Shown here: in pieces, positions 5,685 through 39,372 of the stretch
Position numbering within the stretch: position 1 is the stretch's first letter
Layout of the letters: every line of letters starts with the position of its first letter
Source: Corallococcus macrosporus DSM 14697
Lineage (GTDB): Bacteria; Myxococcota; Myxococcia; Myxococcales; Myxococcaceae
Assembly (NCBI RefSeq): GCF_002305895.1
Contig: NZ_CP022203.1
Location: 7,474,001-7,538,000, forward strand
Length of the DNA stretch: 64,000 bases
Reading direction: 5' to 3'
Program-made: the position numbers and the translations under genes
The notes under the pieces: generated by a model
The model's database searches: none
What the model was told of the DNA's origin: nothing
Seen by the model: the letters and a program-made list of their open reading frames with translations, nothing else

Positions 5685-5708
5685 CCTTTCTCTCAAGGAT
5701 GAAACACC

Positions 5709-6215
5709 ATGGAAATCTACAGCTCTTCCCAGAACAAGCAGCGGACGCAGAAGCCGCGTGAGGTCTACTACTCGCGCACGAAGCTCATCCTCGGGACCCT
5801 CATCTGGACGGTGGCCTCGGGCCTCTTCGGCATCCTCACCTCCCGGCTGACGAACAGCCCGGGCGTGATGCTCGTCTGCGGGGCCATCACCCTCTGCATG
5901 GTCTGGATGCTCTACGGCTGCATCCGTGGACTGGGCCGACTGGACAAGCCCGCGCTCATCATCGGCCGGGATGGCCTCCGCTTCGACGACGGCCTCCTGA
6001 TTGAGTGGGCCGACATGACCGAGAACACGTATTACAGCCAGTCCTACATGGGCATCCCCACCCTCAAGCTGATTCAAGTCAAGACCACGCTGGACAAGCC
6101 CAAGGTCAAGAAGCTGCGGGCGGCGGCGCTCGACATCGACAGCGACGAGTACCTGGAGCTCTGCGACGCCTACAGCCAGAGCCCCAACCCCGCGATGACT
6201 CCCGCCCGGCCGTAG
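5709..6215 (+). CDS. Two-helix membrane protein with a PH-like tail
   Basis: A 168-residue protein with two transmembrane segments at about residues 24-44 and 50-70, then a soluble segment (IIGRDGLRFDDGLLIEWADM) resembling the second half of the previous gene. An AAGGA site precedes the ATG, and the 24-bp gap to the upstream gene suggests an operon. I recognise no catalytic residue. The shared layout suggests the two genes are related or act together at the membrane. Confidence 0.7.
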   Translation: MEIYSSSQNKQRTQKPREVYYSRTKLILGTLIWTVASGLFGILTSRLTNSPGVMLVCGAITLCMVWMLYGCIRGLGRLDKPALIIGRDGLRFDDGLLIEWADMTENTYYSQSYMGIPTLKLIQVKTTLDKPKVKKLRAAALDIDSDEYLELCDAYSQSPNPAMTPARP

Positions 6216-6224
6216 CGCGCCCCT

Positions 6225-6764
6225 TCAGTCCGTGAACCGCTCGACGAGCAACGCCAGACGCTGGCGCAGCACCCGGGGCGCGGGCAGGTCGGACTGGAGC
6301 CCATCGACCGCGAGCATGAACACCTCGGAGAGCGGCTTCGACGCCAGGACGGCCTGCGTGTACTTGAGCCAGCGCCGCCGGTGGCGGGCCTCCACCTCCG
6401 GCAGCAGCCGCTCACAGGCGGCGTAGAACTCGGACGCCATGGGCGCCCCCGCAATCAGCGCCCACGGCTCCAGCAGGATGATTTCGTAGACCTGGAGGAG
6501 CTTGTCGCGCGCGGTCCCCGGCCGCGCCAGCACCTGCTCCACCCGCGGATAGCGCGCCTCGAAGAGGGACTCGAAGACGGCCGCGTAGATGTCCTCCTTG
6601 TTCTTGAACTTCAGATAGAGCAGCGGGCGCGACAGGTTCGCCCGCTTCGCGATGTCATCCAGTGACGTCTTCGCGTAGCCGAACCGCAGGAAGCACTCCA
6701 GCGCGGCGTCCAGAATCGCCGCCCGGCGCAACGCATCCCGCTCCTCGCTCCTGGTGCCCGCCAT
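6225..6764 (-). CDS. TetR-family transcriptional regulator
   Basis: A 179-residue regulator with a clear N-terminal helix-turn-helix (residues about 12-60: RRAAILDAALECFLRFGYAK, TSLDDIAKRANLS, RPLLYLKFKNKEDIYAAV). It is divergent from the MBL-fold hydrolase gene at 6828, with an imperfect inverted repeat between them, so it probably represses that gene and itself. The ATG at 6764 gives the usual short lead before the first helix. It converges with the membrane-protein pair on its left. Confidence 0.88.
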   Translation of the reverse strand: MAGTRSEERDALRRAAILDAALECFLRFGYAKTSLDDIAKRANLSRPLLYLKFKNKEDIYAAVFESLFEARYPRVEQVLARPGTARDKLLQVYEIILLEPWALIAGAPMASEFYAACERLLPEVEARHRRRWLKYTQAVLASKPLSEVFMLAVDGLQSDLPAPRVLRQRLALLVERFTD

Positions 6765-6774
6765 CCCGAACGAT

Positions 6775-6800
6775 TTGACAAAAATTCCCTATTTCGTCAA
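6775..6800. promoter_or_regulatory. Imperfect inverted repeat, probable TetR operator
   Basis: The divergent 63-bp spacer contains TTGACAAAAA and, 6 bp on, ATTTCGTCAA. The arms are reverse complements at 8 of 10 positions (outer arms TTGAC/GTCAA are exact). The left arm also looks like a -35 hexamer. The position just upstream of both start codons fits a repressor site; this is inference. Confidence 0.5.
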
Positions 6801-6827
6801 TTCATCCCCACACGACGAAGGGCGCGG

Positions 6828-7997
6828 GTGCACGACATGACGTGGCGCGGGAGGCTGGCATATGCGGCGATGGGGACGACGGCGCTGCTGGCCCTGCTGT
6901 TGACCGCGGTCGCCATCGAGGCGTGGCCGGCCCTGGGGACGGCCGCGGACGGCGCGCGGCGGGCCCGGATGGAGCGCTCGCCGCAGTGGAAGGACGGCCA
7001 CTTCGACAACCCGCAGCCCCTGCGCAACGACGCCTGGGGCTCCATCGCGAGCTTGTTCCGCCCCAGCCCCGACGTGAGCCCCGCGCCGGGCGCGCTGCCC
7101 TCGGTGTCACTGGACCGGAGCGCCTTCGCGACGCCGCCCGTCACGGGCCTCCGCGTCACCTGGCTCGGGCACTCGACGTCGCTCGTGGAGCTGGACGGGC
7201 ACCGGCTTCTCATCGACCCGGTGTGGGGCGAGCGCACCTCGCCCGTGAGCTGGATAGGCCCCCGCCGCTGGTACGCGCCCCCGCTGGCGCTGGCGGAGCT
7301 GCCCGCCGTCGACGCGGTCGCCATCTCCCATGACCACTATGACCACCTCGACCACCCCACCCTGCTGGCGATGAAGGATTGGGACACGACCTTCATCGTG
7401 CCGCTCGGCGTCGGCGCGCACCTGGTGGACTGGGGCATCCCCGAGTCGCGCATCGTCGAGCTCGACTGGTGGGAGCGCACGCGCGTGGGGACGCTGGAGG
7501 TCGTCTGCACGCCCGCCCGGCATGCCTCGGGGCGGACCGGCATCGACAAGGACGCCACGCTGTGGGCGGGCTTCGCGTTCCTGGGCCCCACGCACCGCGT
7601 GTACTACTCGGGCGACACCGGCCTGTTCCCCGCCATGCGGGACATTGGCGAGAAGCTGGGCCCCTTCGACCTGACGATGATTGAAGTGGGCCAGTACCAC
7701 GGCGCGTGGCCCGACTGGCACATCGGCCCCGAGCAGGCCGTCACCGCGCACCAGTGGGTCCGGGGCCGCGTGCTGCTGCCCGTGCACTGGGGCCTGTTCA
7801 GCCTGGCGCTGCATGGCTGGACCGAGCCCGTCGAGCGGGTGCTCGCCGCGGGAGCGGCCGCGGGGGCACGCGTCATCGTCCCGAAGCCGGGAGAGCGCGT
7901 CGAGCCCGGCGCGCCGCCTCCGCCCGAGCGCTGGTGGCCCCAGCTCCCCTGGACCACGGCGGAGCAGGACCCCATCGTCTCCACCCAGTTGGACTGA
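6828..7997 (+). CDS. MBL-fold metallo-hydrolase (NAPE-PLD/UlaG-like) with N-terminal membrane anchor
   Basis: A 389-residue protein. One hydrophobic segment (residues about 9-32) suggests a signal or anchor. The metallo-beta-lactamase core follows: a WLGHSTSLVEL strand, the di-metal motif HDHYDH at residues 168-173, HASGR, SGDTG, and a late HWG. The WLGHSTS opening and the sequence around SGDTG resemble the N-acylphosphatidylethanolamine phospholipase D-like and UlaG-like branch. Starts at GTG 6828 and ATG 6837 are both possible. It is divergent from a TetR gene that probably controls it. The substrate may be a phospholipid or other phosphodiester, but that is only family inference. Confidence 0.82.
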   Translation: MHDMTWRGRLAYAAMGTTALLALLLTAVAIEAWPALGTAADGARRARMERSPQWKDGHFDNPQPLRNDAWGSIASLFRPSPDVSPAPGALPSVSLDRSAFATPPVTGLRVTWLGHSTSLVELDGHRLLIDPVWGERTSPVSWIGPRRWYAPPLALAELPAVDAVAISHDHYDHLDHPTLLAMKDWDTTFIVPLGVGAHLVDWGIPESRIVELDWWERTRVGTLEVVCTPARHASGRTGIDKDATLWAGFAFLGPTHRVYYSGDTGLFPAMRDIGEKLGPFDLTMIEVGQYHGAWPDWHIGPEQAVTAHQWVRGRVLLPVHWGLFSLALHGWTEPVERVLAAGAAAGARVIVPKPGERVEPGAPPPPERWWPQLPWTTAEQDPIVSTQLD

Positions 7998-8102
7998 CCG
8001 GAGCGCGCGCCCGCCGTCCGGTGTGGCGCCTGCCCGCCCGTCCGGCGCAGGTGCCCTTCCTGAGCGCCAGGAAGCACCTTGAGCGCGGGAGGCAGCGCGC
8101 GG

Positions 8103-8663
8103 ATGAACAGACGACTCGGTTCGCTTTTCCGAAGAGACCCGGCCGAAGTCCAGGGCGCCTATTTCCTGCTGAAGGGCCTGTGGCCCCTGCTCCAACCGGA
8201 GCGAGTCACGCGGCGCATCGGCCCCGTCCGCGAAGGCTGGTTGATGAAGACGGTGTGCGGGCTCGCCGGCACCGTGGGCGCCACGCTGCTCACCGCGCAC
8301 CGCAACGGCCGCGTCACCCCGGAGCTGCGCAACCTGGGCATGGGGAGCGCGTTCGCGCTCCTGGTCGTGGACGTCTCCACGTATGCCACGAACCGCGCGC
8401 GACGCGCGCCCCTCTTCCTGGGAGACGCCGCCATCCAGGCGGCGCTGCTCGTGGCCCAGTGGCGGGCCTGGCGCCGCATGCCGGTGGTCATCGACGCACG
8501 CACCACCCCATTGAGTGACCCGTCGCGGTATGGCGCGGGCGAGCACGGCCGCTGGAACATCCTCCCCGGAGAGACCCGCGACGCGGCCGGCCGCCGCGAC
8601 ATCGTCGCCGAGGGCTCCATGGCCTCCTTCCCCGCCAGCGACCCGCCTTCCTACATGGGGTGA
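8103..8663 (+). CDS. Hypothetical membrane-associated protein
   Basis: About 186 residues from ATG 8103, chosen over TTG 8079 because GGGAGG lies upstream. The middle has two moderately hydrophobic stretches (TVCGLAGTVGATLLT and LGMGSAFALLVVDVSTYA) that could be membrane helices. The C-terminal third is soluble and ends in SFPASDPPSYMG, a short tail common in small uncharacterised proteins. I recognise no family. It ends 38 bp before the retron operon but differs in character, so I do not count it as part of the retron. Confidence 0.6.
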   Translation: MNRRLGSLFRRDPAEVQGAYFLLKGLWPLLQPERVTRRIGPVREGWLMKTVCGLAGTVGATLLTAHRNGRVTPELRNLGMGSAFALLVVDVSTYATNRARRAPLFLGDAAIQAALLVAQWRAWRRMPVVIDARTTPLSDPSRYGAGEHGRWNILPGETRDAAGRRDIVAEGSMASFPASDPPSYMG

Positions 8664-8701
8664 GCGACTGCCCCCTGTGTCCGGAGGCACCCCCGGTATA
8701 A

Positions 8702-10621
8702 ATGGGGGACGTGAGTGAAAGCTGGGAGAAGCGGTTCCGCCGCGAGGTGAAGGAGATGGACGCCGCCCTGCGGGGCGTCCTGTCCCGGAGACAATCCGAC
8801 GAAGCGCTTCGCGCCGCGCTCGAGGAGCTCGCGCGCCGCCCCGCCTTCCGGTCCTTCACCTGGCTGTGGGGGCCCGCCCTCAACGCCAGGGACCGGGTCC
8901 GCTTCCGGCCCCTCATGCTGTCCTGCTTCTCCCCCAGCAGCATCACCGCCGCGGGGAAGTGGGTGAACCCCTGGACGGGGGAGAACGCGGCCGCGCTGGA
9001 GGCCTGGCTCGCGGACGCGGACCGCGCCGACGACGTGGAGCTGTTTCGCCGCCTTCATGCCTGGAAGCTCGCGGGCCTGCGCGGGCCCCAACAGGCGAAG
9101 ACCTGGCGGGAGGAGGTGGTGCGGCGTGTCCAGGCCGCCCCCACCCGCGCGGCGCGGCACCTCGAGCTCGCCAAGCTGGACAGCGGCTGGGTCAGGCTGG
9201 ACGAGCCCACCGCCCTGGCGCTGGACGCGGTGGACGCGGAGGCCGCCCGGCCCTTCATCCTGGCGCACCTGCCCTGGAGCGACACCCACGAGCGCCCCTC
9301 TCCGTGGGACACGCTGCGCGCGCGCGCCCAGGCCCGGGGGGACGCGGCGCTGGCCTCCGCCCTCTACCGGCGGTTGGTGGATGAGCCCACGTGGCACCGC
9401 GATGCCCTGGCCTTCGCGCGCACCCTCCCGTCCCCGTCCGCGCTGGTCGCCGCGCTGAAGGAGCACCACCCGGAGTCGCACATGCCGGGCGCGGCGCAGC
9501 TCTTCGTGGAGCTGGCGGAGACGCGCGGACGCGACGTGGTGCCCTACCTGCTCGAGCACCTGAGGTCCGTGTTCCCCCGTTGGGGCGTGCTGGGACGGAA
9601 GAACGCGAAGGGCTTCCCGGACCTGCTGGCGCTCGCGTGGACGCGGGACTGGGAGGACGTCTGGGGCGCGCTGCTGCGGACGTCGGCCACGCCGGAGACG
9701 TATGACGCGGAGGTGCGGCGGCTGGTGCGGGACACCGCGTCGCTCCCCGCCCGGACCCGGCGCAGGCTGCTCCTGCTGGCGGGCGCGGGAGGCGAATGGA
9801 ACCTCCCAGGCCTGGGCGTGGCCCGGGTGCAACCCCTGACGGACGCCACCGCCACCGCCCTGTACGCGCGCTTCCCGGAGCTGGCGCGAGGCCCCTTCCG
9901 CATGCACGTCGCGTCTGGCTGGCGCGCCGCGTACCCCAAGCTGGTGACGCGCGCGCTGGAGGCGAATGACGAGGACCTGCTGGACTTCCTCGCCAGCCGC
10001 GCCGCCATGCACACGCCCACGCCGCGCGACACGAAGGAATGGGAGCAGGTGCTCGACGCGCTGGCCTCGCACTACGAGGCCCTGCCCAAGGAAGGGGGCG
10101 TCTTCGCCCGCCGCGCCGCCAACGCGCTGGGGGCCCTGCCCGCCTACGCCATCTGGAACTTCGACGCGCTCGTGGAGAAGAACCGGCTGGCGCGGCTGTT
10201 CTTCCTCCGCTCGGACGACTTCTACCTGGCCGAGCCCCGCGCGGTGAGAGACCTGCTGGAGGCGCCGCAGATTCACGTCCAGGCGCTGGCCTTCCGCCTG
10301 CTCGGCCGCGACTCCGCGCGCGCCCGCGAGGTGGCCGCGCAGAACCTGGACCTGCTCCAGGCCACCCTGCTGCGGCCGCTGCACCGGCGCACGCGCCACG
10401 CCGCCTTCGCCGCGCTGGCCAACGCCGCCGCCCACGGCGTGGAGGCCGCCCGCGTGCTGGTGCCGCGCGTGCGTGACGCCTTCGCGCTGCCGGACACGCG
10501 CTACCCCAAGGAGTCGCTGATGGCGCTCCTGGCCCACATGCTGACCCGCTGGCCCGAGCTGCGCGGCCCGGCGGAAGTCCCCCACGTCTTCGGCCTGCCC
10601 GTGAAAGGAGACGGCGCGTGA
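8702..10621 (+). CDS. ARM/HEAT-like helical-repeat protein of a type XIII-like retron
   Basis: A 639-residue soluble protein made almost entirely of short amphipathic helices rich in Ala, Arg and Leu. Recurrent 'Leu-x-x-Leu...Ala' blocks are clearest in the last 200 residues (VQALAFRLLGRDSARAREVA and HRRTRHAAFAALANAAAHG), the look of HEAT or ARM repeats. No catalytic motif is visible. Its TGA overlaps the start of the SWIM-domain gene (GTGA), so the two are translationally coupled, and the msr-msd RNA and reverse transcriptase follow. In the published retron classification, as I recall it, type XIII has an ARM-repeat protein plus a winged-helix/SWIM protein next to the RT. Its defence role is inferred from that. 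Confidence 0.72.
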   Translation: MGDVSESWEKRFRREVKEMDAALRGVLSRRQSDEALRAALEELARRPAFRSFTWLWGPALNARDRVRFRPLMLSCFSPSSITAAGKWVNPWTGENAAALEAWLADADRADDVELFRRLHAWKLAGLRGPQQAKTWREEVVRRVQAAPTRAARHLELAKLDSGWVRLDEPTALALDAVDAEAARPFILAHLPWSDTHERPSPWDTLRARAQARGDAALASALYRRLVDEPTWHRDALAFARTLPSPSALVAALKEHHPESHMPGAAQLFVELAETRGRDVVPYLLEHLRSVFPRWGVLGRKNAKGFPDLLALAWTRDWEDVWGALLRTSATPETYDAEVRRLVRDTASLPARTRRRLLLLAGAGGEWNLPGLGVARVQPLTDATATALYARFPELARGPFRMHVASGWRAAYPKLVTRALEANDEDLLDFLASRAAMHTPTPRDTKEWEQVLDALASHYEALPKEGGVFARRAANALGALPAYAIWNFDALVEKNRLARLFFLRSDDFYLAEPRAVRDLLEAPQIHVQALAFRLLGRDSARAREVAAQNLDLLQATLLRPLHRRTRHAAFAALANAAAHGVEAARVLVPRVRDAFALPDTRYPKESLMALLAHMLTRWPELRGPAEVPHVFGLPVKGDGA

Positions 10622-12222
10622 CGGCCTCCAGCTTCCTCTACGCCACGCCCTCCGTGTTCGAGTCCACGCGGGAGCGCGCGCAGCTCCAGCTCACGGCGGA
10701 CTCGCACCGCCCCGTGCGCTTCCACGCGCGCGTGGCCCGGGACGTCCTGTCCTTGCGGCTCGCGCTCCAGGCGCTCGGCGGGCTCATCTGGCACTCGGAC
10801 GCGTGGAACGAAACCTGGGGCGGCCTGCTGGACCCGCTCATCACCGTCCACCCCGACCGCGTCTTCTTCGAGGCCTTCAGCCAGGACCAGAGCGCCTACG
10901 GGCTCGTCATCGTGGACCGCGGCCTCTTCGCTCCCGAGGGCGAGGTGCGCTGCGGCACCACCAACGTGGACTTCACCGCCTGGCTGTGGGCGGCGCTGGC
11001 CGAGATGCGCTCCACCCGCGAGACGCACCTGCGCATCGGCCCGGAGGGGCTCGACGTGCGCACCACCGGCGCGGGCGGGCGCTTCGAGCAGAAGGTGGAC
11101 GTCCCGGAGAGTTGGGTGCGCGGCCTGCTCCAGCTCCAGGGTGGCATGGCCCTCCCGGGCACCCGCCTGTCGGTGCGGCCGGTGGACCTGCTCGCGGCGG
11201 TGCGCTTCCTCAGCCACACCAAGGCCAAGGTGTCACCGCGCGCGCTGCGCTACGAGCTGCACCCGGGGCAGGACGCGCGGCTGGTGCTGGAGCCCTGGGA
11301 GCACCCCGTGCCCTTCAAGGGCGCGGCCCACGGCTACCAGGCGCCTCGCGTCATCCGCGCCTGGGGCCGCCGGCGGCTGCGGCTGCTGGAGCCCCTGCTC
11401 CCCTACGCGGAGAAGGTGGACGTCTACCTGAAGGGCCGCGCGCTGCCGCACTTCTACGTCGCGCACCTGCCCGGCGGCGTGCGCTTCCTGCTGGGCCTGT
11501 CCGGGTGGACGGCGAACCACTGGACGAACACGGCGGGCATGGACCTGCTGCTGGAGCCGTCGCGCGACGCCGCATTGGCGGAGCGCGTGCTCGGCGTGCT
11601 GCGCGAGCGCTTCCACGCCTCGACCGACGAGGTCGCCACCGCCCTGGGCGTGGACGCGGCGCGGGCCGCGGGGGCGCTGGCGGCGCAGTGCGCGGCCGGG
11701 CGCGCCCTCTTCGACGTGGAGGCGCGGCGCTGGCGGCACCGCGAGCTGTTCGCCACGCCCGTGGACCTGGGCCGCCTGTACCCGCCGGACGCCCGCCGCG
11801 AGGAGGCGGAGCGCCTGGAGGCCGCGGGCCAGGTGGAGGTGACGTCCGCGGCGCCGCGCGAGACGCGCAAGGTGCGCACGCTGTCCACACCCGAGGGCTC
11901 CGTCGCGCGGGAGGTCGTCTACCGCGACTGGGTGGTGCATGGCCGCGCGGGCGCCCAAGCCGGCCTCGAGCTGGTGATGAACGACGAGGACCGCATCCTC
12001 TTCGGCCGGTGCGGCTGCGACTTCTTCAACGAGCACCTGATGAACCAGGGGCCCTGCGCCCACCTGCTCGCGCTCAGCCGGCTGGCGCGCGCCCAGCGCC
12101 GGGAGCTGAGCAGCTCCGAGCCCGCCTCGGTGGACGCGCTCGCGGCCAGGGCGGCGGAGGCGGGCGCGCGGCGGCAGGCGGAGGCGCTTGACCCGGGAGA
12201 CGGTGATGACGATAACGGCTAG
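10618..12222 (+). CDS. SWIM zinc-finger protein of a type XIII-like retron
   Basis: A 534-residue protein starting at a GTG that overlaps the upstream stop codon. Near the C-terminus is a complete SWIM zinc-finger signature, CxC at residues 465 and 467 and CxH at 480-482 (C-G-C, 12 residues, C-A-H). Before it (about residues 320-375) a helical stretch 'RVLGVLRERFHASTDEVATA' reads like a winged-helix domain. SWIM domains bind nucleic acid or protein. The stop codon lies 1 bp before repeat a1 of the msr-msd RNA, so the transcript probably continues through the RNA into the RT gene. The pairing with an ARM-like protein and a retron RT points to a type XIII retron accessory protein. Confidence 0.8.
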   Translation: MTASSFLYATPSVFESTRERAQLQLTADSHRPVRFHARVARDVLSLRLALQALGGLIWHSDAWNETWGGLLDPLITVHPDRVFFEAFSQDQSAYGLVIVDRGLFAPEGEVRCGTTNVDFTAWLWAALAEMRSTRETHLRIGPEGLDVRTTGAGGRFEQKVDVPESWVRGLLQLQGGMALPGTRLSVRPVDLLAAVRFLSHTKAKVSPRALRYELHPGQDARLVLEPWEHPVPFKGAAHGYQAPRVIRAWGRRRLRLLEPLLPYAEKVDVYLKGRALPHFYVAHLPGGVRFLLGLSGWTANHWTNTAGMDLLLEPSRDAALAERVLGVLRERFHASTDEVATALGVDAARAAGALAAQCAAGRALFDVEARRWRHRELFATPVDLGRLYPPDARREEAERLEAAGQVEVTSAAPRETRKVRTLSTPEGSVAREVVYRDWVVHGRAGAQAGLELVMNDEDRILFGRCGCDFFNEHLMNQGPCAHLLALSRLARAQRRELSSSEPASVDALAARAAEAGARRQAEALDPGDGDDDNG

Positions 12223-12223
12223 C

Positions 12224-12384
12224 GCTCCTGGGAGAGGTCAGGGTTCGCGGATGAGCCATGCGTCCCGCGGTGCTTCGCCGCGGGGGAGTTCTGTTCCCTT
12301 CTCTTCGCCAGGGTCCCAGCGTACGCAACGCTGGGAGCCCCGGGTCCAACGCCTCGCAAGTCATCCCCTGGCCTCTCCCGGAGC
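12224..12384 (+). ncRNA. msr-msd: Retron msr-msd non-coding RNA (template for msDNA)
   Basis: Repeat a1 (12224-12243) and repeat a2 (12366-12384) are reverse complements over about 19 bp, with one extra T in a1 and one mismatch. This long end pairing is diagnostic of msr-msd. Inside, an msr hairpin pairs CCCGCGG (12264-12270) with CCGCGGG (12278-12284). An msd hairpin pairs CCCAGCGT (12315-12322) with ACGCTGGG (12328-12335) around a 5-nt loop. An AGC at 12254-12256 just inside a1 is the likely site of the branching guanosine (12255). The RNA ends 3 bp before the RT start codon. The short msd fits a small msDNA such as the 65-nt Mx65 type. Confidence 0.88.
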
Positions 12385-12387
12385 ACC

Positions 12388-13671
12388 ATGAGCTGGTTCG
12401 ACGCCTCCCTGTCCTGGCTCAAGGGGCTGTTCAGCCGCCCCGTGACACGAAGCACCACCGGGCTGGACGCGCCCCTGGACGCCCACGGCCGCCCGCTGGA
12501 CGTGGTGCGTGAGACGGTCACCACCTCCGGCCCCCTCAAGCCCGGACACCTGCGGCGGATTCACCGGGACGCGCGGCTGCTCCCCAAGGGCGTCCGCCGC
12601 TACACCCCGGGCCGGAAGAAGTGGATGGAGGCCGCCGAGGCCCGGCGGCTGTTCTCCGCCACGCTGCGCACGCGGAACCGGAACCTGCGCGATTTGCTGC
12701 CCGACGAGGCGCAGCTTGCCCGCTACGGGCTGCCAATCTGGCGCACCGAGGCGGACGTGGCCGCGGCCCTGGGCATCTCCGTGGGCATGCTGCGCCACTA
12801 CAGCCTCCACCGCCCGCGTGAGCGGGTGCGCCACTACGTGACGTTCGCGGTGCCCAAGCGCTCCGGCGGCCACCGGCTGATTCACGCGCCCAAGCGCCGG
12901 CTGAAGGCCCTGCAACGCCGGCTGCTGGAGCTGCTGGTGTCGAAGCTCCCCGTCAGCCCGCAGGCCCATGGCTTCGTGGCGGAGCGCTCCATCAAGACGG
13001 GCGCGGCGCCCCACGTGGGGCGGCGGGTGGTGCTGAAGCTCGACCTGAAGGACTTCTTCCCCTCCGTCACCTCGGCGCGGGTGCGCGGGCTGCTCATCGC
13101 CCTGGGCTACGGCTACCCCGTGGCGGCGACGCTCGCGGTGTTGATGACGGAGGCCGAGCGGCAACCCGTGGAGGTGGAGGGCGCCGTCTTCCACGTCCCG
13201 GTGGGCCCGCGCGTCTGCGTGCAGGGCGCCTCCACCAGCCCCGGCCTGTGCAACGCGGTGCTGCTGCGGCTGGACCGGCGGCTGGCGGGCCTGGCGCGCC
13301 GCTACGGCTATACGTACACGCGCTACGCGGATGACCTCAGCTTCTCCGGTGATGACGTCGCGGCGCTGGAGCGGGTGCGCGCGCTGGCCGCGCGCTATGT
13401 TCGTGAGGAGGGCTTCGAGGTCAACCGCGACAAGACGCGCGTGCAACGCCAGGGCGGCGCCCAGCGCGTCACGGGCGTCACCGTCAACGCGACGCTGGGC
13501 TTGTCTCGCCAGGAGCGGCGGCGGCTCCGGGCGATGCTGCACCAGGAGGGGCAGGCGGGTGACGACGAGGCACGACGCGCGCGCCTCGACGGACTGCTGG
13601 CCTACGTGAAGATGCTCAACCCGGAGCAGGCGGAGCGCCTCGCTCGCCGGCGCAAGCCGCGCCGGAGCTGA
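12388..13671 (+). CDS. Retron reverse transcriptase (Mx65-like)
   Basis: A 427-residue reverse transcriptase, the length I recall for retron-Mx65. The catalytic motif YADD is at residues 313-316 (RYADDLSFSGDD) and the first catalytic Asp lies in VVLKLDLKDFFPSVT. Retron-specific features are present: an 'AHGF' segment (SPQAHGFV) at the position of the NAxxH motif, and a VTG triplet (QRVTGVTVN) near the C-terminus. About 140 residues of N-terminal extension carry a short helix-turn-helix-like stretch (EADVAAALGISVGMLRHYS). It would copy the msd part of the RNA just upstream into branched msDNA. It should form one transcription unit with the ARM and SWIM genes. Confidence 0.95.
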   Translation: MSWFDASLSWLKGLFSRPVTRSTTGLDAPLDAHGRPLDVVRETVTTSGPLKPGHLRRIHRDARLLPKGVRRYTPGRKKWMEAAEARRLFSATLRTRNRNLRDLLPDEAQLARYGLPIWRTEADVAAALGISVGMLRHYSLHRPRERVRHYVTFAVPKRSGGHRLIHAPKRRLKALQRRLLELLVSKLPVSPQAHGFVAERSIKTGAAPHVGRRVVLKLDLKDFFPSVTSARVRGLLIALGYGYPVAATLAVLMTEAERQPVEVEGAVFHVPVGPRVCVQGASTSPGLCNAVLLRLDRRLAGLARRYGYTYTRYADDLSFSGDDVAALERVRALAARYVREEGFEVNRDKTRVQRQGGAQRVTGVTVNATLGLSRQERRRLRAMLHQEGQAGDDEARRARLDGLLAYVKMLNPEQAERLARRRKPRRS

Positions 13672-13689
13672 GCCGAGACGCCTCGGCTC
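13670..13689 (+). terminator. Hairpin at the end of the retron RT gene
   Basis: GAGCCGAG and CTCGGCTC form an 8-bp perfect stem with a 4-nt loop, overlapping the RT stop codon. There is no T-tract, so intrinsic termination is uncertain. Confidence 0.4.
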
Positions 13690-13990
13690 CGGACGGGCAC
13701 GCGCCCCGGCATCCCAGGTGTCATGGCGGCCGTCCCAGTACACGACGTCGAGGGTCGCGGGCGTGTCGCCCTGCGTCACGCCTCAAGCACATGGCGTGAC
13801 GTAGAATCGGGACCTGGGGTGGATTCTCGCCTGCCCGCTCGCCTGTGAAAGATGACACCGCCTGCAGTGACGTGGTAACCGGACTGTCCACTCGTTGGTG
13901 GTCAAACGGTGTGCGCTCACGCCCGACCGCCAGCCAGGGAAGCCGCTGTGGACCTCGTGGCCGCCCTGACTACCGCAGGAGAAACGAGAC
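13690..13990. other. Intergenic region between the retron and the KamA-like gene
   Basis: No complete gene is visible. On the minus strand, 13779 down to about 13690 encodes a short stretch (DVVYWDGRHDTWDAG) with good third-position G/C bias, possibly the start of a gene that the retron region truncated. The right part is a leader with GGAG ahead of the ATG at 13991. Confidence 0.4.
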
Positions 13991-15325
13991 ATGAGCGTCA
14001 TGTCAAACGCAGCACTGGCTCTGTCCACCGGGCGTCGCTATCGGGCCTTCACGAACCGGCACCTGGACGAGCTGACAACCCGGGCTGGGCTCCCTGCGGA
14101 CGAGCGGCTCGCGGTGCAAGCGGTCGCGCAGGTGCTGCCCTTCCGGACCAACAGCTACGTCGTGGACGAGCTCATCGACTGGGACGCCGCTCCCGCGGAC
14201 CCCATCTACCGGCTCGTCTTCCCGCAGGCGGACATGCTGCCCGCGGACGACGTTGCGCGCATCGCGGACCTGCTGCGCGCCGGGGCGTCCCCGCTGGAGC
14301 TGAACGCGGCGGCCAACCAGATTCGCGCGCGGCTCAATCCCCACCCCGCCGGGCAGATGCAGCTCAACGTCCCCAAGCTGGCCAATGACGAGCCCGTCCC
14401 GGGCCTCCAGCACAAGTACAAGGAGACGGTGCTCATCTTCCCCAAGCAAGGACAGACGTGCCACGCCTACTGCACGTACTGCTTCCGCTGGGCGCAGTTC
14501 GTGGGAGACGCGGACCTGAAGTTCGCCTCGCGGGAAATCGAGCCGCTGGTGGAGTACATCCGCTCCCATCCCGAGGTCACCAACGTGCTGTTCACCGGTG
14601 GCGACCCGATGATCATGACCGAGGCCGTGCTGGCGAAGTACATCGAGCCGCTGCTGGACATCGAGCACCTGGAGGCCATCCGCATCGGCACCAAGGCGCT
14701 GGCCTACTGGCCCCAGCGCTTCGTCACGGACCCGGACGCGGACGACGTCCTGCGCCTGTTCGAGAAGGTCGTCGCCTCTGGAAAGAGCCTGGCCTTCATG
14801 GCGCACTTCTCCCACCCCAATGAGATGGTCCCCGAGATTGTCCAGGAGGCGGTGCGCCGCATCCGGGGCACCGGCGCGGTCATCCGCACCCAGGCGCCGC
14901 TCATCCGCACCATCAACGACGCGCCGGACACCTGGGAGAGCATGTGGCGCACGCACCTGCGCCACGGCATGGTGCCCTACTACATGTTCGTGGAGCGGGA
15001 CACCGGCCCCCAGGACTACTTCGCGGTGCCGCTCGCCGAGGCCTACGACATCTTCCGCAATGCCTACCAGAACGTGTCTGGCCTGGCGCGGACGGTGCGC
15101 GGCCCGTCCATGTCCGCCACGCCCGGCAAGGTGTGCGTGGACGGCGTGGCGGAGATTGCCGGCGAGAAGGTCTTCGTCCTGCACTTCATCCAGGCGCGCG
15201 ACCCGGCGCTGGTCGGCAAGCCCTTCTTCGCGAAGTACGACGAGAAGGCCTCCTGGCTCTTCGACCTCAAGCCCGCGCTGGGCGCCACCCACTTCCCGTG
15301 GGAAGCGCCGTCCTCGCGGACCTGA
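13991..15325 (+). CDS. KamA-family radical SAM protein (lysine 2,3-aminomutase-like)
   Basis: A 444-residue radical SAM enzyme. The [4Fe-4S] motif CxxxCxxC is at residues 157, 161 and 164 (CHAYCTYCFR), followed by FTGGDPMIMT, the family's SAM-binding Gly-rich step. The closing sections (ATPGKVCVDGVAEI, GEKVFVLHF) match KamA-like proteins. Family members catalyse PLP- and SAM-dependent 1,2-amino shifts on lysine, glutamate or an EF-P lysine; I cannot choose the substrate. The start at 13991 follows GGAG. It is probably monocistronic. Confidence 0.88.
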   Translation: MSVMSNAALALSTGRRYRAFTNRHLDELTTRAGLPADERLAVQAVAQVLPFRTNSYVVDELIDWDAAPADPIYRLVFPQADMLPADDVARIADLLRAGASPLELNAAANQIRARLNPHPAGQMQLNVPKLANDEPVPGLQHKYKETVLIFPKQGQTCHAYCTYCFRWAQFVGDADLKFASREIEPLVEYIRSHPEVTNVLFTGGDPMIMTEAVLAKYIEPLLDIEHLEAIRIGTKALAYWPQRFVTDPDADDVLRLFEKVVASGKSLAFMAHFSHPNEMVPEIVQEAVRRIRGTGAVIRTQAPLIRTINDAPDTWESMWRTHLRHGMVPYYMFVERDTGPQDYFAVPLAEAYDIFRNAYQNVSGLARTVRGPSMSATPGKVCVDGVAEIAGEKVFVLHFIQARDPALVGKPFFAKYDEKASWLFDLKPALGATHFPWEAPSSRT

Positions 15326-15562
15326 ACGCCGCGCGGCGGGAGGCCCTCGTCGCCGCCCTCCCGCCGCTCAGGGTCCAGCGGCTCAGCCCTGGATGGTGAC
15401 GCGAACCGGGTGGCGGGCACCTGCGCGAAGCCCGCGATGCTGGTGCCCACGAAGGTGACGTGGTCGGAGCTCGGCCGTCACACTCGCCTGCCTCCTCCCG
15501 GGACGGGCGACCCCGTGGCCCGGCGCCTTCCTGCCGCGCCCGAGCGTGCATACCGTGGCGGC

Positions 15563-15865
15563 ATGCTCGGCGACCGTTCATGGGATGAGTGGATTTCGGA
15601 GTACTCGAAAAGCCACACCCACACCGTCAATCGCTTCTGCCATACCGTGGGCATTCCGATGATTGCGGCGTCGGTGCCCCTGGCGGCGGCTTCTCCCTTC
15701 GTCCCGCGGCTGTGGAAGGTCCCCACCGCCCTGTTCGTGGTGGGCTGGGCGTTCCAGTTCGTGGGCCACGCCTTCGAGCGCAAGCCCCCTGAGTTCCTCA
15801 AGGACTGGCGCTTCCTCTTCGTGGGCCTGCGCTGGTGGGCCGCGAAGGTGGCGGGGAGGGCGTAG
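15563..15865 (+). CDS. DUF962/Mpo1-like small membrane protein
   Basis: A 100-residue protein from ATG 15563. It carries the family opening WxxxYxxxHxxxxNRxxHxxG (WDEWISEYSKSHTHTVNRFC, then HTVGIP), two hydrophobic segments (MIAASVPLAAASPF and ALFVVGWAFQFVGHA) and a second His group in GHAFERKPP. These are the usual features of DUF962, the family of yeast Mpo1, which oxidises 2-hydroxy fatty acids. The frame is open further upstream to 15410, but conservation begins at this Met. It converges with the flavoprotein gene. Confidence 0.82.
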   Translation: MLGDRSWDEWISEYSKSHTHTVNRFCHTVGIPMIAASVPLAAASPFVPRLWKVPTALFVVGWAFQFVGHAFERKPPEFLKDWRFLFVGLRWWAAKVAGRA

Positions 15866-15879
15866 GGCGCGGGCGCCGC

Positions 15880-17133
15880 TCAGGCCCGAGGCGGCGCGGC
15901 GGGCGTGCGCACGTGTTCGGGCCGCACGCCCATGCCCACGAGGCGCGCGGGGATGCGCCGCAGGAAGGGGACGTGCTGGACGAGCCACATCGGGAGGGGG
16001 AGCCCGCCACCGGACGCCGCCGGGCGCCGCAGCGCGGGCCCCAGCACCCGGTTCTGGATGAGGACCTGGGCCCGCTGGGTGATGCGCGTGGGCCACTCCC
16101 GGCGCTCCTGGACCCGGCGCAAGTGCTCGGGTGTCACGCGCCGGGCCAGCAACGGCCCCGCGAGGATGTTGGCGGCGGCCACCGCGTCCTGCACCGCCAG
16201 GTTGATGCCCACGCCGGCCACGGGCGACATCGCGTGCGCCGCGTCCCCGATACACAGCAGGCCCGCCTGGTACCAGGTGCGCAGCCGGTCCACCCGCACC
16301 GTGAGCAGCTTCACGTCCTCCCACGTCGCCAGCTCATGAACCCGGTCCGCGAGGAACGGCGCCTGCCGGGCGAGGTCCTCGCGGAATGACGGCAGGCCCG
16401 CCGCGCGCAAGGCCTCGGCGCTGCCCTTCGCGATGACCCGGCCGCACTGCCACGAGTCCCCCCGGTTGATGAGGATGAAGATCTGGCCCTGCTCGAAGCG
16501 GCCCATGGGGTCCTCGGGGTCCCCAGGGCCGCGCGAGACGCGGAACCAGAGGACGTCCATGGGCGCGCCCAGCGTCTCCACCTCCAGGCCCGCCTGCTGG
16601 CGCAGCGTGGAGTTGCGCCCATCCGCCGCCACCACCAGGTCGGCGCGAACCTCCAGCGCCCCCTCCGGCGTCCGGGCGCGGACCCCCACGACCCGCCCCT
16701 CCTCCCGCAGCACGTCCGTCACCTCCGCGCACTGGCGCAGTTTGAAGCCCGGCCAGGCGGACGCCTTCCGCGCGAGGAAGTCCAGCAGGTCCCACTGCGG
16801 CATGAACGCGATGTACCGCGCGTGCGTGGGCAGGTGGCTGAAGTCCGCCACCACCACGTCATGGGCGTCATTCTGGAAGCGCAGCATCGGCGCCTTCTGG
16901 TGAGGCAGGGCGAGCAGCTCATCCAGCCAGCCCAGCTCGTGCATCAACTCCAGCGTGGAGGGGTGGATGGTGTCGCCCCGGAAGTCGCGCAGGAAGTCGG
17001 CGTGCTTCTCCAGCACCGTCACCTCCACCCCCGCCCGCGCCAGCAACAGCCCCAGCATCATCCCCGCCGGGCCTCCTCCCACAACACAGCACTGCGTGGT
17101 GCGCACCTCGTCGGCCATGTCTGCCCCCGCCAT
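15880..17133 (-). CDS. FAD-dependent aromatic-ring monooxygenase (PHBH/UbiH-like)
   Basis: A flavoprotein of about 417 residues from ATG 17133; 17118 is also possible, and the frame stays open to 17262. The Rossmann FAD motif GGGPAGMMLG is near residue 18, followed by VTVLEKHADF. The central DLVVAADGRNS matches the DG motif, and CIGDAAHAMSPVAGVGIN the second FAD-binding GD motif of PHBH-type single-component hydroxylases. Members hydroxylate aromatic or quinone substrates with NAD(P)H and O2. Context gives no substrate: the neighbours are a DUF962 protein and a carbonic anhydrase. The C-terminal tail is basic and hydrophobic, so it may be membrane-associated. Confidence 0.86.
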   Translation of the reverse strand: MAGADMADEVRTTQCCVVGGGPAGMMLGLLLARAGVEVTVLEKHADFLRDFRGDTIHPSTLELMHELGWLDELLALPHQKAPMLRFQNDAHDVVVADFSHLPTHARYIAFMPQWDLLDFLARKASAWPGFKLRQCAEVTDVLREEGRVVGVRARTPEGALEVRADLVVAADGRNSTLRQQAGLEVETLGAPMDVLWFRVSRGPGDPEDPMGRFEQGQIFILINRGDSWQCGRVIAKGSAEALRAAGLPSFREDLARQAPFLADRVHELATWEDVKLLTVRVDRLRTWYQAGLLCIGDAAHAMSPVAGVGINLAVQDAVAAANILAGPLLARRVTPEHLRRVQERREWPTRITQRAQVLIQNRVLGPALRRPAASGGGLPLPMWLVQHVPFLRRIPARLVGMGVRPEHVRTPAAPPRA

Positions 17134-17486
17134 GTCAACCCCAGGCCTCTGGACTCTAGCCCCCCTCTCCCCCGGAACGACCAGACATTCCAGGAACGGA
17201 CGTATCCGGGTGACAGCAGGGCCACTCCAGGGGGGCGCCACTCGGCGCGCAGGCGATGTCATTCACGACCCGTCATCATCCACCGACAGGCTGTCTGTAC
17301 CGGCCGACAGAAAGTATCGGAAACAGTGGCTGGAAAAGTATTACGAACTTAAATGGTAATTCGTGAATGCCCGCCGACGACCTCGAGCGCGGCGCGCGTC
17401 CGCCTGAGCGGGACGGCCCTTGCCTGACGTGAGGCACGGGGGCCCGGCTCGTGTTCGCTGTCACATCCCAAAAAGGACGCATTCAC
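17134..17486. promoter_or_regulatory. Divergent promoter region of the flavoprotein and carbonic anhydrase genes
   Basis: About 350 bp with no coding signal. The right part (17320-17370) is clearly more AT-rich than its surroundings and holds an imperfect inverted repeat, ATTACGAA and TTCGTGAAT, around 17340-17366. A CGACAG/CTGTC pair lies near 17282-17295. AAGGA at 17473-17477 is the ribosome site for the next gene. No specific regulator can be named. Confidence 0.4.
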
Positions 17487-18314
17487 ATGTCGCGTTTTCG
17501 CACGCTGTCGGTGCGCGCTCTGAAGAGCGCGTTGGTGTCATCCGTTTGCCTTGCTTCAAGCGCCTTCGCCCAGGACCTCCGCGGGACCCCGGCCCCGGTC
17601 TTCCTGAGCGGAGAGGACGCGCACTGGGGTTATTCACAGACGGTCAGCCCCCAGCGCTGGGGCGAGCTCCCGGGAAATGCCGTGTGCGCCGCGGGGCTGG
17701 ACCAGTCCCCCATCGCACTGGTGACGGCGACGGCGACCCCGCAGAATCACCAGGACGCCCCCAGCTTCCACTACGGCACCAGCCGCGTGCGCATGACGAA
17801 CAACGGACACACCGTCCAGTTCACCTATGACGTCGGCAGCACCCTCCAGGTGGGTGGCAATACATATCACCTGGCACAATTCCATTTCCATACGCCCAGC
17901 GAGCACACCAAGGACGGCGTGGAGTACCCGCTCGAGGTGCACCTGGTGCACACGGACGCCCATGGCACCCCGGCCCTGGTCGTGGGCGTGCTCATCCAAG
18001 AGGGGTTCGTGCACCCGGGCTTGTTCACCGCCTTCCGGCACCTGCCCAGGCACGCCGGTGAGCACAGCCAGCCCGCTGGCGCGCTCATCAACGCCAGCTC
18101 GCTGCTGCCGTTCAACAAGGCGTTCTACAAGTACGCCGGCTCGCTCACCACGCCTCCGTGCACCGAGGGGCTCCAGTGGTACGTGATGAAGAACCCCATC
18201 GAGCTGTCGGACTCGCAGATTGCCGCGTTCCAGCGTCTGCCCTACCTCAACCCGAACAACCGTCCGCTGCAGCCGCTGAACGGCCGCGTCGTCACCACGC
18301 GCCACGGACACTGA
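17487..18314 (+). CDS. Alpha-class carbonic anhydrase, exported
   Basis: About 275 residues from ATG 17487, with a signal peptide (basic RFRTLSVRALKS, a hydrophobic SALVSSVCLASSAFA, cleavage near AFA-QD). The catalytic domain begins HWGYS and contains QFHFHTPSEH. The three zinc ligands are seen as His133, His135 and His152 (LEVHLVH). LTTPPCTEGLQWYV is the conserved substrate-pocket Thr region. It interconverts CO2 and bicarbonate in the periplasm or outside the cell. The frame extends 12 codons upstream, but the AAGGA and the signal peptide support this start. It stands alone. Confidence 0.93.
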   Translation: MSRFRTLSVRALKSALVSSVCLASSAFAQDLRGTPAPVFLSGEDAHWGYSQTVSPQRWGELPGNAVCAAGLDQSPIALVTATATPQNHQDAPSFHYGTSRVRMTNNGHTVQFTYDVGSTLQVGGNTYHLAQFHFHTPSEHTKDGVEYPLEVHLVHTDAHGTPALVVGVLIQEGFVHPGLFTAFRHLPRHAGEHSQPAGALINASSLLPFNKAFYKYAGSLTTPPCTEGLQWYVMKNPIELSDSQIAAFQRLPYLNPNNRPLQPLNGRVVTTRHGH

Positions 18315-18579
18315 GGTCCAGGCCGGACGCGCTTCGCGTGTCCACGTCCCGATGACTCCAGGGGGAGCGCACGCCGAGCCCCCTGGCTCGCGTGACGCGG
18401 AGGCAGACCGCTTCCGCGCACGCCGCCCGACACGCGGAGAAGACATGCTCCGGGTCCCCGCCCGGGTGGATGCCGCCCAGCACGACGGGCAGGTCCGGGG
18501 ACACGTCCTCGAGGTGCTCCACCACCCCGCGCGCCCTGGGCCCGTTGAGCGTGTTCTTGTTCCCGGCATTCCGCTTCAT
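18292..18579 (-). pseudogene. Possible remnant of a B12-binding radical SAM gene
   Basis: On the minus strand a GAGGAGG site precedes an ATG at 18579, and the first 45 codons have strong third-position G/C. The segment EDVSPDLPVVLGGIHPG resembles the 'vPvvlGGxHp' part of cobalamin-binding domains of radical SAM proteins. After about residue 45 the sequence loses that look and runs into the end of the carbonic anhydrase gene. I read it as a decayed 5' fragment; it may be chance. The rest of 18580-18799 holds no gene. Confidence 0.3.
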
Positions 18580-37929: not shown

Positions 37930-38379
37930 GCTTCCGACCTTCTTCGCCAATCTCCTCCCGGTAGGCGCCCTCCAGGTCTTGGCGCAGGCGCAGTTCGCGC
38001 CGGAATCCGCGGCCGACACCCTGGCCATCGTCGGTGAGGACTTCCCTGGCGCTGTCATCGTTCGACCCACGACGGACAAGGTGGTTGTGCTTCCCCGCTG
38101 AAGTTCTCCGCGGTCGAGTGCGCGGAGCAACGCTTCACGCTGCCCTTCCGGGCATGGGAGGACGGTGGATCCTCAAGCTTGGCTCGGAGACCTGCCCGAA
38201 GCTCCCGGAGAGTTCGAGGACTTCCTCCTGAGAGGAAGTACACGGGGTGGAGCCTGGATGGCCTCGCGCGCTTCATCGGCGACCTCTGCGGCCCCGAGGA
38301 CCTGGCGGAGTACCTGTGGCGTGTCCTCTTCCTCAGTCAGCGACGGCTCCCGTCCGGAACTGCAATTGAATCCCCGTGA
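37910..38379 (+). pseudogene. hipA: Decayed hipA-like toxin kinase gene with several frameshifts
   Basis: Three successive frames carry HipA-type segments in the right order: DHFPGELPTFFANLLPVGAL and IVGEDFPGAVIVRP (37913-38100), then FSAVECAEQRFTLP with GMGGRWILKLGSETCPKLPE (about 38103-38210), then KYTGWSLDGLARFIGDLCGP and EYLWRVLFL (about 38236-38335). HipA proteins show 'FFANLLPEG', 'GEDCPGAV', 'GGRWIxKLPS' in this order. The N-terminal domain is partial and the catalytic C-terminal half is absent, so this is a dead type II toxin-antitoxin toxin gene. Confidence 0.6.
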
Positions 38380-38535
38380 GGGTGCCCTCAGAAGCTGCAC
38401 CAGCAGTGGGTGTTCACACCACACCCACTGACCGCCTTCGCACGAGTCAGGAGAGGACGTGTGGCCTATCCGGCCGACGAGAGCAGTCCCTTTCGCGGAG
38501 TCGAGGCACGGTCCACGCCGCCCCGAGAGAACTGC

Positions 38536-39126
38536 CTACGTGTCCTCTCCGCGCTGGGACGGAGGCCACAGCGCACCGAGCTTCAGCTCGAAGTCCTCGA
38601 ACGGCGCGGCCCGGATGATGTCCTCGTCACCATGGACGCCCAGCTCGACCCAGCGGTCATTCATGAGCTCGCTCACGATGAGCGTGCGCGCATCCAGGTC
38701 GATGAACCAGAGATGGCGGATGCCGATGCGCGCGTAGAAGGGGCGCTTGATGCGCTGGTCGTACGCACGCGTGCTGGGGGAGAGAATCTCGCAGGCCCAG
38801 TCCGGAGCGAGCGTCCACCGACTGGTGGGGAACTCGGGGACGCGCTCGCGACGCCACCCGGCCAGGTCTGGAACGAACTCCGGCGAGCCCTCTACCTGGA
38901 TTCCAGGCTCCGTCAGCAGCCACCAGCCATCACGCCCTCCGCGTCCCCGTTGAAAGGGCCCGTCCAATTCGGCGATGAGCCTGCTCTCCAAATAGGAGTG
39001 CCCTGCCATCGGACGCGGATGCGCATAGAGCGTCCCATCGATGATCTCCCCCACGACCCCCTCCTGAAGCGCGTCGAGGTCGGCGAGGGTGGCAGGATGG
39101 TCCAGCTTTCGAGCCCCGTAGCCCAT
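38536..39126 (-). CDS. Uma2-family (DUF820) endonuclease-like protein
   Basis: About 196 residues from ATG 39126. The family pattern is clear: ATLADLDALQEGVVGEIIDG, the conserved YLESRLIAELDGPF, then the PD-(D/E)XK-like core FVPDLAGWRRERVP and DWACEILSPSTRAYDQRIKR followed by YARIGIRHLWFIDLDARTL. Uma2 proteins are abundant in cyanobacteria and myxobacteria; most have unknown roles, and a nuclease fold is inferred. The same frame continues to 39285 but without conserved sequence. Confidence 0.83.
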   Translation of the reverse strand: MGYGARKLDHPATLADLDALQEGVVGEIIDGTLYAHPRPMAGHSYLESRLIAELDGPFQRGRGGRDGWWLLTEPGIQVEGSPEFVPDLAGWRRERVPEFPTSRWTLAPDWACEILSPSTRAYDQRIKRPFYARIGIRHLWFIDLDARTLIVSELMNDRWVELGVHGDEDIIRAAPFEDFELKLGALWPPSQRGEDT

Positions 39127-39372
39127 GCCGACAGTGTGGGGATAACGCCGGACTCTGACAAGCAGCCCCCACCGGTGGGGCAAGTCCCGAATCATGTTTC
39201 GTAGGTTCGGATGGGGTTCGCGAAAGGAAGACTCCTTGGCGGCATCATGCAGCAGCGGTGTCAGGGGTCGCGGAGCGGTCGGCAACCTGCGGCTGGACGC
39301 GGTAGCGCCGCGTGCCGAATGCGCCCCGAGGGGCGTTCAGGAGGGAGGAGGCTCCGGTCGTAGTCCGCGCGC

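What the first reader, a model, noticed from the sequence alone, without database searches (positions are those of the whole stretch)
8702..13671. Complete type XIII-like retron with ARM, SWIM, msr-msd and RT
The four parts sit in order with overlapping or abutting ends: an ARM-like gene, a SWIM zinc-finger gene (GTGA overlap), an RNA with 19-bp a1/a2 repeats and internal hairpins, and a 427-residue YADD RT 3 bp later. From memory of the retron classification, ARM plus winged-helix/SWIM defines type XIII, among the less studied types. How its two accessory proteins work with msDNA is not known to me.
Basis: partly seen in the sequence, partly recalled or inferred. Interest (0 to 1): 0.72.

Follow-up and report, generated by a model that had tools for sequence, protein, structure and literature searches.

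The report
Mx65-type retron with clamp-like protein
This is a complete bacterial retron, the close counterpart of the long-known Mx65 retron of Myxococcus xanthus, and one of its two helper proteins is predicted to be shaped like the ring-forming sliding clamps that hold DNA polymerases on DNA, which gives a first concrete idea of how this little-studied retron type might work.

Summary
The RNA is real: compensatory changes across 21 orthologs, one copy per genome, always between SWIM and RT. RT and SWIM match PADLOC's type XIII models. The ARM gene does not: PADLOC's type XIII solenoid is a ~2,000-aa protein (present in the host's second, Mx162-like retron), whereas the window has a 636-aa alpha-solenoid with no detectable sequence relation to it. 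RTs with the short solenoid form their own clade, and the short solenoid occurs nowhere else in 195 Myxococcota genomes. The RT is 90% identical to the published Mx65 RT, so this is the Mx65 ortholog. New here: residues 34-298 of the 'SWIM' protein are predicted to be a two-domain DNA sliding clamp (PCNA/9-1-1-like, Z about 17), followed by a winged helix and the SWIM finger. This protein is constant across type XIII-like loci while the solenoid partner changes. Most likely an anti-phage system in which msDNA restrains a clamp-like DNA-binding effector; that mechanism is inferred, not shown.

The parts
8711..10621 (+). Short ARM-like alpha-solenoid protein, 636 aa (GTG start shared by homologs; ATG at 8702 also possible)
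   Evidence: 17 homologs; AlphaFold2 pLDDT 89.6, all-helical; ARM/importin-like, Z up to 10.4, weak as for all solenoids; no Pfam/PADLOC match; dN/dS 0.29-0.40
10618..12222 (+). Clamp-like / winged-helix / SWIM protein, 534 aa, GTG start overlapping the ARM stop
   Evidence: PADLOC SWIM_XIII 5e-143; alignment A5; model pTM 0.76; dN/dS 0.22-0.27
10717..11511 (+). Residues 34-298: two-domain DNA sliding-clamp-like fold (PCNA / 9-1-1 / DnaN), with conserved Arg on or next to the four helices that would face DNA (R47, R131/R134, R196, R251-253)
   Evidence: Foldseek PDB E 1.7e-9, prob 1.00; VIA Z 16-17.5, 230-257 residues; viral library gives clamps again; conserved basic residues
11569..11748 (+). 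Residues 318-377: winged-helix domain
   Evidence: profile match to AdcR/MarR-type wHTH E 0.005; MarR/HTH matches in homologs; helices 318-331, 336-343, 347-359 in model
11974..12075 (+). Residues 453-486: SWIM zinc finger CxC...CxH
   Evidence: Pfam SWIM in 22 of 22 homologs; C465, C467, C480, H482 invariant
12224..12243 (+). a1 arm of the msr-msd transcript
12250..12256 (+). GATGAGC: helix strand GATGA plus priming site, branch G predicted at 12255 (GAGC as in Mx65)
   Evidence: helix 4 covaries, 94% paired; GAGC is the Mx65 priming motif (PMC6868368)
12264..12284 (+). msr hairpin
   Evidence: 7 bp, covarying, 96% paired
12296..12360 (-). predicted msd, about 65 nt of msDNA (ends by analogy with Mx65, not measured); hairpin at 12315-12335
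   Evidence: gapless alignment to the M. xanthus Mx65-type loci L083/L079
12361..12384 (+). TCATC helix strand (12361-12365) and a2 arm (12366-12384)
12388..13671 (+). Retron reverse transcriptase, 427 aa, YADD 13324-13335, VTG 13468-13476, GAAPH variant of NAxxH
   Evidence: PADLOC RT_XIII 7.4e-130; Pfam RVT_1; PDB retron RTs; tree
8666..13765 (.). Whole retron cassette, absent as one block from the same site in another Myxococcus genome (G107)
   Evidence: window 8065-8665 and 13819-15342 are neighbours about 129 bp apart in L186; right edge approximate

Best explanation
The locus is a complete, selectively maintained retron, the ortholog of Retron-Mxa2 (Mx65), of a short-solenoid lineage within type XIII. 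Shown by sequence: RT, msr-msd and two accessory genes travel together as one unit. Inferred: the RT primes from the 2'-OH of G12255 and copies 12360 to about 12296 into a roughly 65-nt msDNA whose strongly conserved hairpin stays bound to RT and the msr RNA. The second protein is predicted to be a two-domain sliding-clamp-like protein with a winged helix and a zinc finger, i.e. a DNA-binding module that could hold or encircle duplex DNA, and the ARM solenoid is its dedicated protein partner. The likeliest working is an anti-phage retron: the RT-msDNA complex binds and restrains the clamp/ARM pair through the conserved msDNA; when a phage alters the msDNA or the replication machinery it mimics, the clamp-WH-SWIM protein is released onto DNA and, with the solenoid, blocks or poisons DNA replication.
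For: Identity: RT 90% to the M. xanthus DSM 16526 Mx65 RT, whose published coordinates FNOH01000027.1_37959_39242_+ (PMC8934634) coincide with the match on G117 contig 27 at 37959, ORF to 39239 plus stop; GAGC priming site and loss of the N of NAxxH as reported for Mx65 (PMC6868368). Unit: same order ARM-SWIM-RNA-RT in Myxococcota, Verrucomicrobiota and Steroidobacter; all 23 short-ARM hits in 195 Myxococcota genomes lie in such a locus; empty site; purifying selection on all three genes. RNA. msDNA constraint: msd 76-80% identical to Verrucomicrobiota/Steroidobacter while a1/a2 fall to 16-54%; 98% identical to L085 although dS is about 0.5. Clamp: conserved arginines at the four inner-helix positions. 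Retrons as defence systems with msDNA as sensor: abstracts shown (PMC12548924, PMC13158370).
Against: No msDNA, phage or toxicity data exist for this locus. The clamp assignment rests on one AlphaFold2 model and fold comparison; profile comparison with Myxococcota DnaN gives nothing, and ring formation cannot be tested here. No enzymatic domain was found in either accessory protein, so what would kill or arrest the cell is a guess. The wide presence in Myxococcus (16 of 27 genomes) would also fit a housekeeping or developmental role.
Confidence: 0.6

Rival explanations
1. It is an ordinary type XIII retron exactly as catalogued (RT + SWIM + HEAT-ARM), with nothing distinctive.
For: RT_XIII and SWIM_XIII models match strongly; the upstream gene is a solenoid in the same position.
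Against: The upstream gene does not match HEAT-ARM_XIII, which the Mx162-like locus of the same genome matches over 2,169 residues; the short-ARM profile does not hit the giant protein; short-ARM RTs are a separate clade (97/91).
Confidence: 0.2
2. The clamp-like fold is only a shared architecture: the protein is a DNA-binding regulator (winged helix plus SWIM) that controls the operon or host genes and never encircles DNA.
For: Winged helix and zinc finger are typical of regulators; no sequence similarity to DnaN; fold does not show function.
Against: Z 16-17.5 over nearly the whole length of PCNA, both clamp domains, in two structure libraries; arginines conserved at all four helices that would line the hole; constant pairing with large solenoid proteins rather than with a regulated gene.
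Confidence: 0.3
3. The retron serves a non-immune role in myxobacteria (DNA repair, replication control or development), with the clamp acting as a 9-1-1-like damage clamp.
For: Best VIA match is the yeast Rad24-RFC/9-1-1 complex (tied with PCNA within 1 Z); sister loci carry WGR domains known from PARPs; frequent in Myxococcaceae.
Against: Patchy presence as a removable cassette at several sites and in distant phyla is more like defence; retrons are described as immune systems (PMC12548924 abstract).
Confidence: 0.25
4. RT and msr-msd are a selfish element that merely sits next to unrelated genes.
For: Retron RT-ncRNA pairs were long seen as stand-alone.
Against: Gene order conserved across phyla, GTGA overlap, exclusive association of short ARM with this RT clade, and one-block presence/absence.
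Confidence: 0.03

Closest known systems
Retron-Mxa2 (Mx65) of Myxococcus xanthus
   Same: RT 90% identical and 427 aa, GAGC priming motif, N of NAxxH lost, gapless msd alignment, same three-gene-plus-RNA order and same chromosomal neighbours
   Different: Different Myxococcus genome; msDNA not demonstrated here
Type XIII retrons as in PADLOC (RT_XIII, SWIM_XIII, HEAT-ARM_XIII), e.g. the Mx162-like locus L101 of the same genome
   Same: RT and SWIM families, order solenoid-SWIM-RNA-RT
   Different: Solenoid is a 636-aa protein without detectable similarity to the ~2,180-aa WD40-HEAT protein; RT in a separate clade; different msr-msd
PCNA / 9-1-1 / DnaN sliding clamps
   Same: Predicted fold and domain order of residues 34-298
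   Different: No sequence similarity to DnaN; winged helix and SWIM finger added; PCNA_N itself is not found in Myxococcus relatives
RT-less 'SWIM zinc finger family protein' + DUF6493/DUF7824/DUF7825 pairs
   Same: Homologous clamp-SWIM protein (hhalign probability 100%, E 2.6e-50) next to a large partner
   Different: No RT, no ncRNA, different partner protein

Membership tests
Retron | RT with YADD and VTG motifs, retron-type RT by profile | tested here: met
Retron | NAxxH motif in region X | tested here: not met
   GAAPH instead; Mx65 and Ec48 are known, accepted exceptions at the N (PMC6868368), so the motif is not strictly defining and this does not exclude membership
Retron | msr-msd with complementary a1/a2 ends and a priming G in an AGC motif at the end of the stem | tested here: met
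Retron | msDNA produced in vivo with a 2'-5' branch | not testable with these tools
   needs extraction from the strain
Retron-Mxa2 (Mx65) | RT orthologous to the published Mx65 RT | tested here: met
   90% identity; published coordinates coincide with the G117:C27 match
Retron-Mxa2 (Mx65) | GAGC priming site; N of NAxxH substituted | tested here: met
Type XIII retron (PADLOC models) | RT_XIII | tested here: met
   7.4e-130, 432 bits vs 296 next
Type XIII retron (PADLOC models) | SWIM_XIII | tested here: met
   5e-143
Type XIII retron (PADLOC models) | HEAT-ARM_XIII | tested here: not met
   no match for the window gene or its 16 homologs; giant protein of L101 matches. Hence filed as a short-solenoid variant, not a standard type XIII
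Type XIII retron (PADLOC models) | RT inside one clade with other type XIII RTs | tested here: inconclusive
   short-ARM RTs form one clade (97/91) near the WD40-HEAT clade, but some RTs without SWIM fall between at low support
DNA sliding clamp | Clamp fold with two or three repeated domains | tested here: met
   predicted model only:
DNA sliding clamp | Sequence homology to DnaN/PCNA profiles | tested here: inconclusive
   hhalign with 24 DnaN: no signal; Pfam PCNA/DnaN not reported; PCNA and DnaN themselves are hardly alike in sequence (own knowledge)
DNA sliding clamp | Forms a ring that encircles DNA | not testable with these tools
   needs biochemistry or cryo-EM

The most novel reading that the evidence does not exclude
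Type XIII-like retrons are built on a dedicated sliding clamp: a PCNA/9-1-1-like winged-helix SWIM protein that loads on DNA (msDNA or phage replication forks) and recruits an exchangeable solenoid effector, so that immunity acts through, or by mimicking, the replication clamp.
Probability: 0.33. Interest if true: 0.85.

Novelty: new variant of a known kind. Interest (0 to 1): 0.57.

Why it matters
Retrons were discovered in myxobacteria in 1984, yet what the myxobacterial ones do is still unknown. A sliding-clamp-like protein as the constant partner of their RTs, with a msDNA sequence conserved across phyla, turns 'two unstudied accessory proteins' into a testable idea: a bacterial PCNA-like clamp wired to a retron. 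It also shows that a current typing scheme misses one component in the Mx65 lineage, and that the clamp-SWIM protein is shared with RT-less gene pairs that have no assigned function.

Tried and rejected
Rfam: no family. PADLOC/Pfam for the ARM protein: nothing (a single Cas11e match at 0.005 in one homolog was judged chance). hhalign of the short ARM against DUF6493 proteins and of the SWIM alignment against DnaN: no signal. PCNA_N in Myxococcus relatives: absent, and an archaeal PCNA set could not be drawn, so no PCNA profile could be built. SWIM relatives in viral contigs and phage records: none, so no sign of phage carriage. Literature: the 2020 retron classification paper and the 1990 Mx65 paper are not held; searches for retron with sliding clamp, SWIM or type XIII found nothing relevant, so 'not published' means only 'not in this library'. 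Foldseek/VIA neighbours of the ARM model are generic solenoids and were not used to infer function.

Full report
Check of the observation. The window (G000 contig 1, 7474001-7538000; a Myxococcus genome by kinship) carries an ARM-like ORF ending at 10621, a SWIM ORF starting GTG at 10618, a structured intergenic RNA and a 427-aa YADD RT at 12388-13671.

The RNA. In 21 orthologs from Myxococcota, Verrucomicrobiota and Steroidobacter the named structure is 89.7% paired, with 83 double-change cells against 27 in shuffles and 14-24 in slid controls. The MFE has z = -5.6. A covariance model of the core finds one strong copy per retron-bearing genome in 27 Myxococcus genomes and otherwise only two weak ones next to another SWIM-RT locus, and recognises the SWIM-RT gap in loci it was not trained on.

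An unusual feature of the RNA. The stem arms drift (16-54% identity to Verrucomicrobiota/Steroidobacter) while the msd stays 76-80% identical. Within Myxococcus, msd is 98% identical to L085 at a synonymous distance of about 0.5 in the neighbouring genes. The msd sequence itself therefore seems to be recognised by something; inference.

Identity. PMC8934634 lists Mx65 as FNOH01000027.1_37959_39242_+. My RT search returned contig 27 of genome G117 at 37959-39233 with the ORF running to 39239 plus stop: the same gene. It is 90% identical to the window RT. Mx65's two reported peculiarities, GAGC priming and a substituted N in NAxxH (PMC6868368), are both in the window. So the retron is the Mx65 ortholog. 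That Mx65 makes 65 nt of DNA on 49 nt of RNA is from my own knowledge; the window's msd is gaplessly alignable to the M. xanthus one.

Type. RT_XIII and SWIM_XIII match with large margins; HEAT-ARM_XIII does not. The same genome has a second, Mx162-like locus (L101) with a 2,179-aa WD40-HEAT protein that matches HEAT-ARM_XIII over its whole length, a SWIM_XIII protein and an RT_XIII. A profile of the 636-aa protein does not reach that giant protein. In a maximum-likelihood tree of 60 RTs the 22 short-ARM RTs form one clade (97/91; 98% of bootstrap trees), apart from the WD40-HEAT clade and from clades whose SWIM protein neighbours a WGR protein plus a 1,024-aa HEAT protein, or other 580-850-aa proteins. 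In all of these a SWIM_XIII-type protein sits beside the RT. Hence: constant core (RT, RNA, SWIM protein), exchangeable partner.

Linkage. Every one of 23 short-ARM genes found in 195 Myxococcota genomes lies in such a locus. In genome G107 the genes flanking the window's retron are adjacent, with the whole 5.1-kb cassette absent, and in G101 the retron lies elsewhere in the chromosome. All three genes are under purifying selection, the ARM gene least.

What the SWIM protein is. AlphaFold2 with 22 homologs gives pTM 0.76. Residues 34-298 match DNA sliding clamps and nothing else near the top: Foldseek prob 1.00, E 1.7e-9 to Sulfolobus PCNA; VIA Z 16-17.5 over 230-257 residues to PCNA and the yeast 9-1-1 complex; viral PCNA and beta clamps in an independent library. 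Strand and helix order give two clamp domains with an extra helix (164-178) between them. Arginines conserved in at least 91% of homologs sit on or beside the four helices that would line the hole. Then come a winged helix and the invariant CxC...CxH finger. Sequence profiles show no link to DnaN, which is also true between PCNA and DnaN families in general (own knowledge). I found no publication that says this, within an open-licence library only.

What the ARM protein is. A confident all-helical solenoid with generic ARM/importin-like neighbours. No catalytic domain recognised.

Mechanism. Shown: gene set, RNA, linkage, selection. Predicted: clamp fold, solenoid fold. Inferred: RT makes msDNA from 12360 to about 12296; RT-msDNA-RNA binds the clamp-WH-SWIM protein through the conserved msDNA; a phage event frees it; it acts on DNA with the solenoid and stops replication or the cell. 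Published retrons work by restraint of an effector by RT-msDNA (PMC12548924 abstract), and Retron-Eco8's msDNA senses phage SSB (PMC13158370 abstract); a clamp-bearing retron would extend this to the replication fork. I give the anti-phage clamp mechanism about one in three, the identity as Mx65 ortholog above 0.95, and the clamp fold about 0.85.

Relatives without RT. 457-aa clamp-SWIM proteins pair with DUF6493-DUF7824-DUF7825 proteins in other Myxococcus, Streptomyces and Diaphorobacter, so the clamp-SWIM module is broader than retrons.

Verdict. A real, well-described, but already represented retron (Mx65 lineage), a variant of type XIII in its solenoid, with one new and testable structural finding.

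Noticed in passing
L101 (G000:C1:170000-189000), RT 8189-9595 -, SWIM 10047-11777 -, HEAT 11897-18433 -: Second retron of the same genome, Mx162-like, with a 2,179-aa WD40-HEAT protein and a SWIM_XIII protein; two type XIII-like retrons coexist in one cell, probably needing separate msDNA recognition.
   Followed up: partly
L102 (G000:C1:6910000-6929000), RT 8310-9638 -: Third retron-like RT in this genome; best PADLOC models are RT_other/RT_outgroup, no SWIM protein nearby; an RNase H-family gene lies about 1.3 kb away (6383-7027 +).
   Followed up: partly
L128-L132, L196, L197: RT-less pairs of a ~457-aa clamp-SWIM homolog and a ~920-aa DUF6493-DUF7824-DUF7825 protein in Myxococcus, Streptomyces and Diaphorobacter plasmids; function unknown, possibly a defence pair.
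   Followed up: partly
L162/L163/L165/L167: Type XIII-like loci whose solenoid is replaced by a WGR-domain beta-propeller protein plus a ~1,024-aa HEAT protein; a WGR domain also lies near the end of the giant protein of L161. WGR is a DNA-end-binding domain of PARPs.
   Followed up: partly
L100 (RT 11992-13256) and L099 (RT 5689-7017 -): Decaying copies: in G043 the RT is split by a frameshift although ARM, SWIM and RNA are present; in G052 only an RT lacking its N-terminus remains.
   Followed up: partly
L195 5102-10388 (Methylobacterium bullatum, 2.8-Mb plasmid record): SWIM_XIII-like protein followed by a retron-type RT, unannotated in the collection; type XIII-like loci also occur on a replicon filed as a plasmid.
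   Followed up: no
window 12296-12360: msd sequence conserved 76-80% between phyla while the a1/a2 arms are not; unlike the usually variable msd of retrons.
   Followed up: partly
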